A stretch of DNA of 64,000 nt from the NCBI RefSeq assembly GCF_001458775.1, contig NZ_CZPZ01000033.1, positions 62,001-126,000 of the forward strand, written 5' to 3'. The notes under the pieces are model-generated. The model saw only the letters and a program-made list of their open reading frames with translations. It was not told where the DNA came from and searched no databases. Position numbers and translations under genes: made by a program. Origin of the DNA: Candidatus Nitrospira nitrificans (lineage in GTDB: Bacteria; Nitrospirota; Nitrospiria; Nitrospirales; Nitrospiraceae). How positions within the stretch are numbered: position 1 is the stretch's first letter; every line of letters begins with the position of its first letter. Positions 14,808 through 19,335 of the stretch are shown here, piece after piece.

Positions 14808-15191
14808 TTAACCCGTAAAGGCGGCGACCGCCTCTTCTTCCGTGTCGCACAATTGAATGCTTTCTCCGTACACCCGGTTCAGCAGGTCAAAGCCGCTTGC
14901 CTGCAGAGCTTCTTTGACCATCCCTTTCGCGGCGGCAATCTTCATCTGCCCCTGAACATTGTTGAGCTGCTTGCAGGCCAGTATCAGGACTCGAATGCCG
15001 CCGCTGCTGATATAGTCGACATCGGCCAGATTGAGGATGACCTTTTTCGCGCCGGCATCCACAATCTTTTTCATTTCCTGGTTTCCCTGATCCGCAGTGG
15101 TGGCGGAGAGGCTGCCCTGCATCTTCACGAATGTGATCCCGGCATTCTCGCGAGAGGTCACCGTCAATGTGTGTCTGGTCCCTTGATCCAT
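14808..15191 (-). CDS. STAS-domain anti-sigma factor antagonist
   Basis: A 127-residue single STAS domain of the SpoIIAA/RsbV kind. The segment VILNLADVDYISSGGIRVLI carries the serine that RsbW-type kinases phosphorylate in this family (the ISS of YISSGG). In known systems the unphosphorylated form binds the anti-sigma kinase and frees a sigma factor or other target. An AAAGGGA ribosome-binding site precedes the ATG. The upstream gene encodes a fused phosphatase, kinase and STAS protein, the obvious regulator. No sigma factor is nearby. Confidence 0.9.
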   Translation of the reverse strand: MDQGTRHTLTVTSRENAGITFVKMQGSLSATTADQGNQEMKKIVDAGAKKVILNLADVDYISSGGIRVLILACKQLNNVQGQMKIAAAKGMVKEALQASGFDLLNRVYGESIQLCDTEEEAVAAFTG

Positions 15192-15354: not shown

Positions 15355-18126
15355 TCAACGCGCCGCGTGGACCTTTGACAACGCCTCTTCCAGCGTGGAG
15401 GCATAGAGGCTCATCATCAGCGCTCCGCTTAATCGCAGCACCGTACGGACATGGTCGTTTCCCCCGCAGAGCACGATGTTCCCGTCTGTTCGGGTCATTG
15501 CCATCAACACTTTCAGGATCACCCGGAGCCCGATGGAGGAAATATACGAAATACGGGAGAGATCCAGCACGATCTGCCGTTCTCCCTGCCCAATGTGGTC
15601 CAGCAGAATGCGCTCGACCTCCGGCGCGCTGTTCGTGTCGAAGCGGGTCTGGGGAGTGACGATCATCACGGTCCCGCTCCGGCGCGAGTCGACACTCTTC
15701 TCGCCATTCCTTGGGCGTTCGCGCAAGGGGGACGGCAGCCGCTCGACCTCGAATGCGCGGATTCCGGTCTTGTCGGGAGGCTTCATGGCGGAGGATGGTC
15801 CGGAAGCCAACTTCTTTTTCACCGTCAAGACATTGCGTCCCACGTTGCGATGGTAGGACACTTCATCAAACATGGAGCGCACCAAGTGAATCCCCAGACC
15901 GCCGATTTCTCGCTCATGTAGCAGCAGCGACAGATCGGGAGGCGCGACCGTCAGAGGGTTGAAGGGAATGCCGTCATCCGTAATGGTGAAGATGACCCAC
16001 GTATCACGCACTTCGCCTTCGACCTCGATATGATGCTCCGTCGGATCGTTGGGGAAGGCATACTGCACCACATTGTTGAGCAGATCATCCAGCGCCATGT
16101 TGAAGGTGGGAATGAGCGGCTTGGCCGCGTCCCATTGTGCCACATATTGCTCAAAAGCCATCTGGAGGTCCGGAATGACCGCCAATTGATTGGGCATCGT
16201 TCGGCGGAAGACTCGAGTCGCCACGCCGGACGGGGCGACCCCGTGATACCGCAGCCCCAACATGGTGATATCGTCCGCCTGCGGAGCGTCAACGGCAAAG
16301 GATCTTACCGCGTTCATAACCTCGCCAAGTCGATCGACGACCGAGACGGCTCGAGATTGGGTCAGGACTCTTTTCAACCGGTCGTTGCCGAACAGCTCGC
16401 GCCGCCGATTATCCGCTTCGGTGACCCCGTCTGTGTACAAGAAGAGCTCATCTCCCGGACCCAATTGGATGGTCGTCTCCTTGAAGGCGATGCCCGCCAT
16501 GGGACCGACCATGGGGCCGTCGATGCCCGTCAGCCACTCGAACTGTCCATCCTGCCGTTTCAGCAGAGGAGGATTGTGTCCGGCGTTTGTCGCAAGGAGC
16601 GTCCCGTCACGGAGATTCAAAATGCCGAGATAGAGGGTCACGAACATACAGCTGTCGTTATCCGCGCTCAGCGCATCGTTCACATGGGTGACGATACTGG
16701 CCGGCGAGGGATCGGAGGTCGCCCTGGTCTTCACCATGATCTTGGTCATCGCCATGAACAGCGCGGCAGGGACTCCGTTGCCGGCCACATCGCCGATCAC
16801 AAAACAGAGTCGATGGTCATCGACCATGAAAAAATCGTAGAGATCGCCGCCGATTTCAAGGGCCGGCTCGAGCACCGCGTAGAGCTCGATCTCCTTTCGG
16901 TCCGGGAAAGCCGGGAATACGCGCGGGAGCATACTCCGTTGAATATCCCGGCCGACATTCAGTTCTTCCTGCATGCGGGCCTTCGCAGCCTCCACGACCG
17001 CCAACGAATCCGCGAGCCGCGCATTGGCATCCTCGGCGGCCTGTTCGGCGTTTTTCAGAGCCGTAATGTCCGTAGCGATGGCGACAATTCCGCCGTCGTG
17101 AGTCCTCTTCTCGCTGATTTGGAGCCATTCTCCATTGGATCGATATTGAATGTACGGTCCTTGAGGATTATGGTGCATCTCCAGGCGCTGCTTCACCCAC
17201 GATTCAACATTCACGAGCGCCGCGTCGATATCACCTCGTTCGGCAATCCGGCGAATAATCGACTCGAATGTGTCGCCTGGCTGCACCTCCGCGCCGACTC
17301 CTGACATCACCTCCCGATACTTGCGATTGCAGATGACCAGACGGTCCTCCGCGTCGAAAAGCGCAAACCATTGAGGAACACTTTCGATGGCTTCGATCAG
17401 CCGCGCGTGGCTGTCGCGCGCGAGGCTCGATGCCGCCGTCACTTGCCGATCGATGATGGCCAGGAGGGTCGAGAGCGAGACGGCGACCACCGCGAGGAGG
17501 TCAACCTCGATGCCCGGCGGCGGAGCGCCGGGCCTGATGGCGGAAAGGCCATATGTCGGAATCATCCCGATGAAGTGGGATCCGGAAAGAGCAATCCCCA
17601 TGGCGCTCGCCTTTTCCGTGACCCGCCAGTTTCTGTATGTGGTGATATTCCACGCCCCGATCACGATGCCGATGACGCTCAATGCCACGATCCCGACCGT
17701 CGACAGCACAACGACCATGAGGTCATTCTCGAGATCGATCGGCTGATGAACCGCCATCATGCTGGCGAAATGGGTCAGGCTCATGCAGGCGCCCATCAGC
17801 ATGCCCCCGGAGACGAGGCGCATTCGGCTGTTGATATGGCTGCTGATCAGGTACACGGCCACGGCTCCTGTTGCCCCGGCGGAGACAAGCGACAGCACGG
17901 CGAGCGCCGAGTCTTGCGCCGCCGAGACCTGAGGACAGAACGCCAAATTGCCGATGTAGTGAATCGCCCAGATTTCCAGGCCCGCGGCGACGGCGCCGAT
18001 CGTCAGCCATCGGAACCTGACGGAACCTTGGTCGGGAGCGCGCATCCGTTCGGCGATGCTGAGGATGACATAGGCGGCCGCGCCACCCAACAGCATCGAG
18101 GAAATACCCAGCAAGGGATCGCACAT
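15355..18126 (-). CDS. Sensor protein: MHYT, PAS, SpoIIE phosphatase, HATPase, STAS
   Basis: About 923 residues from the ATG at 18126; an in-frame TTG at 18177 would add 17. The N-terminal membrane part (about 1-230) has seven helices with the repeated MHYT-type motifs IHYIGN, THFASM and SHFIGM. This family is proposed to sense diatomic gases through bound metal. A PAS domain (about 240-360) and a coiled coil follow. The PP2C/SpoIIE phosphatase domain shows GGDLYDFF, GDVAGNG and LYTDGVTEA. An RsbW-like ATPase has DDLLNNVVQYAF, DDGIPFNP and GGLGIHLV. A C-terminal STAS domain carries YISSIGLRVIL. Phosphatase, kinase-like ATPase and antagonist thus sit in one chain. Confidence 0.9.
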   Translation of the reverse strand: MCDPLLGISSMLLGGAAAYVILSIAERMRAPDQGSVRFRWLTIGAVAAGLEIWAIHYIGNLAFCPQVSAAQDSALAVLSLVSAGATGAVAVYLISSHINSRMRLVSGGMLMGACMSLTHFASMMAVHQPIDLENDLMVVVLSTVGIVALSVIGIVIGAWNITTYRNWRVTEKASAMGIALSGSHFIGMIPTYGLSAIRPGAPPPGIEVDLLAVVAVSLSTLLAIIDRQVTAASSLARDSHARLIEAIESVPQWFALFDAEDRLVICNRKYREVMSGVGAEVQPGDTFESIIRRIAERGDIDAALVNVESWVKQRLEMHHNPQGPYIQYRSNGEWLQISEKRTHDGGIVAIATDITALKNAEQAAEDANARLADSLAVVEAAKARMQEELNVGRDIQRSMLPRVFPAFPDRKEIELYAVLEPALEIGGDLYDFFMVDDHRLCFVIGDVAGNGVPAALFMAMTKIMVKTRATSDPSPASIVTHVNDALSADNDSCMFVTLYLGILNLRDGTLLATNAGHNPPLLKRQDGQFEWLTGIDGPMVGPMAGIAFKETTIQLGPGDELFLYTDGVTEADNRRRELFGNDRLKRVLTQSRAVSVVDRLGEVMNAVRSFAVDAPQADDITMLGLRYHGVAPSGVATRVFRRTMPNQLAVIPDLQMAFEQYVAQWDAAKPLIPTFNMALDDLLNNVVQYAFPNDPTEHHIEVEGEVRDTWVIFTITDDGIPFNPLTVAPPDLSLLLHEREIGGLGIHLVRSMFDEVSYHRNVGRNVLTVKKKLASGPSSAMKPPDKTGIRAFEVERLPSPLRERPRNGEKSVDSRRSGTVMIVTPQTRFDTNSAPEVERILLDHIGQGERQIVLDLSRISYISSIGLRVILKVLMAMTRTDGNIVLCGGNDHVRTVLRLSGALMMSLYASTLEEALSKVHAAR

Positions 18127-18327
18127 TCCCAGCACAGTGACGCTCCGGTCAGGAGGTTCGTTCCATGCGCGGATCAACCGTCATGACACGCGCCTTCAAA
18201 TCCTCGAATGTAGGGCCGGCTCGGCGTCGAACAAAGTCCGCCTGGCCGGCTTCACCTATGAGAAGCCTCGGCTCGCAAGCAGGAACGCGTCACGGCGCGT
18301 TCTTACACTGAGGTCTCGCCACTGCCG

Positions 18328-19335
18328 CTATCGCACCGGTTGATTGAGGCGGTCCCAGCGTGGAGTTTTCGTGCCGGGATCAACCGACCAGTAAATACAT
18401 ACCGCCCGCCCCACGATGTGCTCCTTGCTGATCGGTCCCAAGAATCGGCTGTCCAGGCTCTCCTCCCGATTGTCACCCAAGACGAAGTAGGCGTCGGGAG
18501 GCACGGTGACAGGCCCAAGGTTATCCCGGACGTTTCCGGACATACTGGATGGATCGGTATGTTGCGCATAGGGTTCGGTCAAGACTTCGTCGTTCACCGA
18601 AACCGCCTGATTATGAACTTCGATTCGATCGCCGGGAACCCCGATCACGCGGTGGAGAAAAAGCGTCCCATCCTTGTCCGGGTAGCGGTAGACGACGACT
18701 TCGCCGCGTCGAGGTTCTGCAGCATGATATGCAGCCTTGTGCGCGATCACATGGTCTCCCGGCAAGAGCGCCGGGACCATCGTCTCGGCCGAGATCTGGA
18801 GCAGATGGGACCGGGCCCGCACCGCCGGCAACAGGTCCGACAGACGGTCCGTCACGAAATTCCAACGGAGTTCTTGCACTCTGGACGTCGGGCTGAGAAT
18901 TTCGTTGTCATACCCCTCGACCAATCGCCGGGCCTCCGATGCCGACACAGTTGCGGCATAGTAGAGCGCGAGATGGTGCTCCCAGAAGTACTCCGGGGCC
19001 AGATCGAACAACATGACTTTGAGCGAGCGCACAAAGGACTGCGCGATCTCTTCCATCTCGGATGGCGTGAACGGACGAGTCAGATCAGACTCGACCTCCA
19101 GTTGATGGCTGAACCCCGCCACGTCGGCGTGGTCCGCGATCGACTGGTACAAACGATTCGATGCCACCTCCAGGCCGGCCAGCTGATGAAACACAGCTTG
19201 GGACTCGTTCTCACCGTCACTGTGAGCCACCGGAGCGGTACTGCACGCAGTCCAGAGCCCACTCCATGCCATAAGCAGACAGAGGACAACATGATTCGAA
19301 GATCGTCCAAGGAGGTGGGATAGGTCGGAGAGCAT
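18328..19335 (-). CDS. Signal peptidase I-like lipoprotein with altered catalytic dyad
   Basis: The 335-residue protein has an N-terminal hydrophobic segment ending in LWTAC (Cys31), a plausible lipobox. A helical region of unknown function (about 45-175) follows, then an S26 signal-peptidase domain (about 178-335). Family boxes are clear: ISAETMVPALLPGD (box B), FLHRVIGVPGD (box D) and GDNREESLDSRFLGPI (box E). The catalytic Ser before Met in box B is Thr185, and the box D general-base Lys is His228. SipW-type and archaeal enzymes use Ser/His, but Thr/His is unusual. It may be inactive, or a peptidase with other chemistry. It lacks the usual N-terminal transmembrane pair. Confidence 0.85.
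   Translation of the reverse strand: MLSDLSHLLGRSSNHVVLCLLMAWSGLWTACSTAPVAHSDGENESQAVFHQLAGLEVASNRLYQSIADHADVAGFSHQLEVESDLTRPFTPSEMEEIAQSFVRSLKVMLFDLAPEYFWEHHLALYYAATVSASEARRLVEGYDNEILSPTSRVQELRWNFVTDRLSDLLPAVRARSHLLQISAETMVPALLPGDHVIAHKAAYHAAEPRRGEVVVYRYPDKDGTLFLHRVIGVPGDRIEVHNQAVSVNDEVLTEPYAQHTDPSSMSGNVRDNLGPVTVPPDAYFVLGDNREESLDSRFLGPISKEHIVGRAVCIYWSVDPGTKTPRWDRLNQPVR

What the first reader, a model, noticed from the sequence alone, without database searches (positions are those of the whole stretch)
18328..19335. Signal peptidase-like lipoprotein with Thr185/His228 instead of Ser/Lys
Boxes B, D and E of S26 peptidases are clear, but the catalytic Ser directly before Met is Thr185 (codon ACG) and the box D Lys is His228. 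In known bacterial enzymes Ser/Lys, and in SipW-like ones Ser/His, is used. The protein also has an N-terminal lipobox (Cys31) and a helical domain of unknown type, rather than a transmembrane anchor pair. It could be a dead binding protein or a peptidase with a new dyad.
Basis: partly seen in the sequence, partly recalled or inferred. Interest (0 to 1): 0.7.

Follow-up and report, generated by a model that had tools for sequence, protein, structure and literature searches.

The report
Dead signal-peptidase lipoprotein in Nitrospira
This Nitrospira gene makes a lipid-anchored relative of the enzyme that trims export signals from proteins, but its whole family lost the cutting residues long ago, so the odd Thr/His pair is most likely a leftover in a retired enzyme kept for another job, probably peptide binding, rather than a new cutting machine.

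Summary
In detail: 18328-19335(-) encodes a 335-aa protein with a lipobox (Cys31), a helical domain and a clear S26 domain, with Thr185 for the catalytic Ser and His228 for the Lys. Orthologues decide the interpretation. In 41 Nitrospira orthologues, position 185 is Ala in 31, Ser in 7 and Thr in only 3; position 228 is His in 38, Gln in 2, Leu in 1, never Lys. The window's nearest relatives (79-84% identical) are Ala/His, so Thr185 is a one-base change from Ala (GCG to ACG), not a new nucleophile. The sister group in another genus is Ala/Lys, so Ser was lost first, Lys later. Both domains are under purifying selection (dN/dS about 0.2) and box E is invariant. This is a maintained pseudo-signal-peptidase, best compared with streptococcal SipA, most likely a binding protein. 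Its gene lies next to a MHYT-PAS-SpoIIE-HATPase-STAS gene in all 19 orthologue neighbourhoods examined; the genome has a separate canonical Ser/Lys LepB. Thr/His catalysis is unlikely. A residual puzzle is a nested clade that by parsimony regained Ser next to His; its activity is untested. New variant of a known kind.

The parts
18328..19335 (-). gene of the S26-like lipoprotein, 335 aa
   Evidence: intact ORF; orthologues in about 42 of 79 same-genus genomes; dN/dS about 0.2
19243..19245 (-). lipobox cysteine Cys31 (LWTAC), predicted lipidation site; +2 residue Ser
   Evidence: Cys conserved in the orthologues; signal type inferred from sequence, no predictor run
18817..19218 (-). helical domain, residues 40-173, tentatively DUF2059-like
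   Evidence: AlphaFold2 pLDDT 88; best fold match PA0856, DUF2059, Z 5.5; hhalign score 20.6 against a shuffle maximum of 16.4, P 0.017
18388..18801 (-). S26 signal-peptidase domain, residues 179-316, catalytically degenerate
   Evidence: Pfam PF10502 133 bits; VIA Z 13.2 to E. coli SPase I, 12.7 to SipA
18781..18783 (-). Thr185 (ACG) at the catalytic Ser position
   Evidence: alignment with LepB; Ala in 31, Ser in 7, Thr in 3 of 41 orthologues
18652..18654 (-). His228 (CAC) at the catalytic Lys position
   Evidence: His in 38, Gln in 2, Leu in 1, Lys in 0 of 41 orthologues
18445..18477 (-). box E, GDNREESLDSR, residues 287-297
   Evidence: G287, D288, N289, R290, S293, D295, S296, R297 invariant in alignment A1
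15355..18177 (-). neighbouring gene: MHYT-PAS-SpoIIE phosphatase-HATPase_c-STAS protein, downstream on the same strand, candidate functional partner
   Evidence: Pfam; adjacent in all 19 orthologue neighbourhoods; present in 35 of 35 lipoprotein-bearing genomes
14808..15191 (-). STAS-domain protein (anti-anti-sigma type), 127 aa, follows the phosphatase gene
   Evidence: Pfam STAS 65 bits; travels with the phosphatase gene also where the lipoprotein is absent

Best explanation
The protein is a maintained pseudo-protease: a duplicated bacterial signal peptidase I whose membrane anchors were replaced by a lipid anchor plus a helical domain, and whose Ser-Lys dyad was lost in order (Ser to Ala, then Lys to His). 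Thr185 is a later, probably neutral, Ala-to-Thr change in this lineage. After export and lipidation it would sit on the periplasmic side of the inner or outer membrane. There the conserved S26 beta-fold would bind a peptide or protein partner without cutting it, as proposed for streptococcal SipA. The adjacent membrane partner-switch protein (MHYT-PAS-SpoIIE-HATPase-STAS) is the best candidate for what it serves, for instance as periplasmic ligand-binding partner of its membrane part. Shown here: family, predicted fold, residue states, order of losses, purifying selection, synteny. Inferred: lipidation, membrane side, lack of activity, peptide binding, and the link to the phosphatase.
For: Position 185 is Ala in 31 of 41 orthologues and Lys is never found at 228. 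The window's Thr lies in a clade of Ala/His proteins. The sister homologues in genus g18 are Ala/Lys, so Ser went first. The equivalents of E. coli Pro87 and Ser88 are Ser182 and Ala183 and these positions vary widely. dN/dS is about 0.15-0.3 in most comparisons in both domains. The S26 fold is predicted with Z 12-13 to SPase I and SipA. A separate canonical Ser/Lys LepB is in the genome. Precedent: SipA lacks Ser and Lys, shows no peptidase activity and keeps the cleft (PMC4049620). Synteny with the SpoIIE-type gene is 19 of 19.
Against: Seven orthologues have Ser at 185, with His in six, a dyad type that works in ER-type signal peptidases. Box E, with the Ser equivalent to E. coli Ser278, is invariant, which could also mean an active centre is kept. 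The phosphatase gene occurs without the lipoprotein in 12 genomes, and the g18 homologues lie beside HflX or other genes, so the link to the phosphatase may be only positional. SipA's own peptide binding could not be shown in vitro (PMC4049620).
Confidence: 0.75

Rival explanations
1. Active peptidase with a Thr-His dyad: Thr185 acts as nucleophile and His228 as general base, in this species and in two others.
For: Thr carries a hydroxyl; His228 is kept in 38 of 41 orthologues; the Ser equivalent to E. coli Ser278 is invariant. Thr/His arose twice.
Against: Nearest relatives are Ala/His and similarly constrained; Thr is one transition from Ala; the residue equivalent to Ser88, which as I recall helps form the oxyanion hole, is Ala in the window.
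Confidence: 0.06
2. Part of the family is an active Ser-His protease: the seven-genome Ser group (motif IPSQSM, His228 in six) regained Ser, while the Ala and Thr members are dead.
For: The Ser rows form a supported group nested in Ala lineages; parsimony needs 6 changes with Ser regained and 11 if Ser can only be lost. They keep the equivalents of Pro87 and Ser88. Ser-His dyads work in ER-type signal peptidases (PMC10269814).
Against: Ala/His sisters share the same IPSQ or TPSQ context; one Ser member has Leu for His (L045); Ser, Ala and Thr codons are one base apart, so Ser may be drift.
Confidence: 0.12
3. Decaying copy of LepB on its way to becoming a pseudogene.
For: A few orthologues are broken (G029 near residues 212-219; G001 near residue 74).
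Against: Present in more than half of the genus, intact in nearly all, dN/dS about 0.2 in both domains, synteny kept. The breaks may be draft-assembly errors.
Confidence: 0.04

Closest known systems
Streptococcus pyogenes SipA (signal peptidase-like pilus assembly factor, PDB 4N31)
   Same: S26 fold with the catalytic Ser and Lys replaced; fold match Z 12.7, 2.4 A over 127 residues; no peptidase activity shown (PMC4049620)
   Different: SipA has Asp/Gly, one N-terminal transmembrane helix and a pilus locus; this protein has Thr or Ala with His, a lipobox, an extra helical domain and no pilus genes in the neighbourhood examined
Bacterial signal peptidase I (LepB), MEROPS S26A, PF10502/TIGR02227
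   Same: boxes B-E recognisable, fold Z 13.2 to E. coli SPase I; over NCBI's equivalog cut-off
   Different: no Ser-Lys dyad, no transmembrane anchor pair; a separate Ser/Lys LepB is encoded at G000:C5
ER-type signal peptidases (Sec11, B. subtilis SipW)
   Same: His in place of Lys as in the Ser-His dyad (PMC10269814)
   Different: sequence and model are closest to P-type LepB; Ser is absent in most members
DUF2059 (PF09832; PA0856, PDB 3OAO/2X3O)
   Same: best, but weak, fold match of the helical domain (Z 5.5) and weak profile similarity (P 0.017)
   Different: no PF09832 hit in any of 24 members; similarity covers about 50-100 residues

Membership tests
Peptidase family S26 by descent (PF10502) | significant match to the family profile and fold | tested here: met
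   133 bits against cut-off 22.9; Z 12-13 to SPase I structures
Active signal peptidase I (S26A, Ser-Lys) | nucleophilic Ser directly before Met in box B | tested here: not met
   Thr185 in the window; Ala in 31 of 41 orthologues
Active signal peptidase I (S26A, Ser-Lys) | general-base Lys in box D | tested here: not met
   His228 in the window; Lys in none of 41 orthologues
Active signal peptidase I (S26A, Ser-Lys) | box E GDN(x)4S(x)DSR | tested here: met
   GDNREESLDSR; G, D, N, R, S, D, S, R invariant
Active signal peptidase I (S26A, Ser-Lys) | N-terminal transmembrane anchor(s) | tested here: not met
   one N-terminal hydrophobic stretch ending in a lipobox, then a helical domain modelled as globular
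ER-type Ser-His signal peptidase | catalytic Ser with His base | tested here: not met
   Thr/His in the window; Ser/His in only 6 of 41 orthologues
SipA-type inactive S26 homologue | S26 fold with Ser and Lys both replaced, domain conserved | tested here: met
SipA-type inactive S26 homologue | role in pilus polymerisation, pilus locus | tested here: not met
   neighbours examined are a SpoIIE-type phosphatase, STAS protein, DLH hydrolase, FAD-dependent reductase and metallopeptidase
Bacterial lipoprotein | type II signal peptide with lipobox Cys | tested here: inconclusive
   LWTAC with Cys31 conserved in the orthologues, Trp at -3 is unusual; no predictor or experiment
DUF2059 | match to PF09832 | tested here: inconclusive
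   no PF09832 hit; weak fold and profile similarity

The most novel reading that the evidence does not exclude
A bacterial signal peptidase that died (Ser to Ala, then Lys to His) has in one Nitrospira clade regained Ser next to His, giving a P-type fold with an ER-type Ser-His dyad on a lipid anchor, while its dead sisters act as periplasmic sensors for the adjacent SpoIIE-type partner-switch protein.
Probability: 0.08. Interest if true: 0.75.

Novelty: new variant of a known kind. Interest (0 to 1): 0.4.

Why it matters
These genes score far above NCBI's cut-off for signal peptidase I, so they are likely to be called as enzymes although the dyad is gone. The family shows the order in which an S26 dyad was dismantled (Ser/Lys, Ala/Lys, Ala/His, then Thr/His or Ser/His), a natural series in which gain and loss of catalysis can be tested. 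It adds a lipid-anchored case from a Gram-negative-type envelope to the few known pseudo-signal-peptidases, and its constant neighbour suggests a role in envelope signalling in Nitrospira.

Tried and rejected
New Thr/His dyad: rejected as main reading because close relatives have Ala. Sequencing error or single decayed copy: rejected by two further Thr/His genomes, dN/dS and genus-wide spread. Overlapping antisense ORF 18340-19323(+), 327 aa: rejected as a gene, since that frame has 2-10 stops in the other orthologues. Another conserved nucleophile: the invariant Ser residues in the S26 domain are Ser293 and Ser296 of box E and Ser317, known or likely structural. N-domain identity: no Pfam or PDB sequence hit worth using; Bcl-xL matches by Foldseek have E above 0.5 and were ignored. 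Literature searches for inactive signal peptidases, for S90T/K145H mutants and for Nitrospira lipoproteins of this kind found nothing useful beyond SipA. The Thr185-His228 distance could not be measured because the tools gave no model coordinates.

Full report
Observation. The ORF 18328-19335(-) is intact and codes for 335 aa. Residues 179-316 match Peptidase_S26 (133 bits) and TIGR02227 signal peptidase I (144.5 bits, cut-off 47). Alignment with E. coli LepB puts Thr185 (ACG) at Ser90 and His228 (CAC) at Lys145. The N terminus has a hydrophobic stretch ending in LWTAC, so Cys31 is a plausible lipidation site.

Family. The window belongs to a Nitrospira genome (titles of the nearest named loci; genome G000). 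Of 79 same-genus genomes searched, about 42 hold an orthologue with the full architecture. A phylum-wide profile search of 396 genomes found the full architecture outside this genus only in genus g18 of the same family, in three genomes. The own genome has one other S26 gene, a canonical Ser/Lys LepB with IPSGSM and FIKR, so secretion need not depend on this protein.

Catalytic positions. Among 41 aligned orthologues, position 185 is Ala in 31, Ser in 7 and Thr in 3. Position 228 is His in 38, Gln in 2, Leu in 1, and never Lys. The LepB-type proteins of the same order, class and phylum that were aligned are Ser/Lys, with one Ala/Lys exception, L063. The paralogue in G039 (L058) is Gly/Gln. The g18 homologues (L125-L127) are Ala/Lys.

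History. Trees built without columns 185 and 228 place the window in a ten-row group (97/91) whose other nine members are Ala/His, and place the other two Thr rows far away. Thr therefore arose twice; in the window it is ACG beside GCG relatives, a single transition. The g18 Ala/Lys proteins are sister to the genus family, so Ser was lost before Lys. The Ser rows form a supported group inside Ala lineages; parsimony needs 6 changes if Ser was regained, 11 if it can only be lost, and 15 if Thr must also come directly from Ser. Parsimony on one column is a weak tool, since Ala, Ser and Thr are one base apart.

Constraint. Counted by the Nei-Gojobori method, dN/dS between the window and ten relatives is 0.15-0.38 in the helical domain and 0.14-0.30 in the S26 domain. 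Met186, Gly193, Asp194, Arg229 and the box E residues Gly287, Asp288, Asn289, Arg290, Ser293, Asp295, Ser296, Arg297 are invariant. Position 185 is more variable than about two thirds of the S26 columns, and positions 183 and 184 are among the most variable. The domain is kept, the nucleophile is not.

Structure. The AlphaFold2 model (mean pLDDT 76) has an S26 domain matching E. coli SPase I (Z 13.2) and S. pyogenes SipA (Z 12.7). The helical domain modelled alone has pLDDT 88. Its best fold matches are two entries of PA0856, a DUF2059 protein, at only Z 5.5 and 5.3, and a profile comparison with Nitrospira DUF2059 proteins scored 20.6 against a maximum of 16.4 in 20 shuffles, P 0.017. I call it tentatively DUF2059-like.

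Neighbourhood. In all 19 orthologue neighbourhoods fetched, the lipoprotein gene lies upstream, on the same strand, of a gene like 15355-18177, whose product is MHYT-PAS-SpoIIE-HATPase_c-STAS. In 65 genus genomes compared, 35 have both genes, 12 only the phosphatase, 18 neither and none only the lipoprotein (the Fisher P of 2e-8 ignores kinship). Where the lipoprotein is absent, the phosphatase still has its STAS neighbour but not the other flanking genes, and two of the three g18 homologues lie beside HflX, so the link is suggestive, not proven.

Mechanism. Best reading: a lipid-anchored pseudo-signal-peptidase that binds a peptide or protein partner at the periplasmic membrane face, possibly feeding the adjacent partner-switch protein. 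The precedent is SipA, which has Asp/Gly in place of Ser/Lys, no detectable peptidase activity and a conserved cleft; its mutants at the old nucleophile position still work (PMC4049620). Lipidation, inactivity, binding and the phosphatase link are inferred here. The Thr/His protease reading stays possible but unlikely.

Novelty. Inactive S26 homologues are known, so this is a new variant of a known kind. What is new, as far as the literature held here shows, is the Nitrospira family with a lipid anchor and helical domain, and the visible order of dyad loss. No paper on it was found.

Noticed in passing
window 15355-18177 (-): One protein carries MHYT, PAS, SpoIIE phosphatase, HATPase_c and STAS domains, a whole partner-switch module in a single chain; in some relatives (G017, G061, G063) the STAS part is set off from the rest, with a stop between.
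   Followed up: partly
window 18340-19323 (+): A 327-aa antisense ORF covers nearly the whole lipoprotein gene; the frame is closed in the orthologues, so it looks like chance.
   Followed up: yes
L063 (G148:C2): Another S26 protein with Ala at the Ser position but Lys kept, in a 615-aa open frame, in a different family of the same order.
   Followed up: no
L125, L126, L127: Homologues in genus g18 are Ala/Lys and lack the lipobox cysteine; two of them lie next to hflX.
   Followed up: partly
L045, L029, L030: Orthologues in which His228 is Leu (L045) or Gln (L029, L030).
   Followed up: partly
L053 (G029) and L037 (G001): Orthologues whose frame is broken, near residues 212-219 and near residue 74; may be draft-assembly errors.
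   Followed up: no
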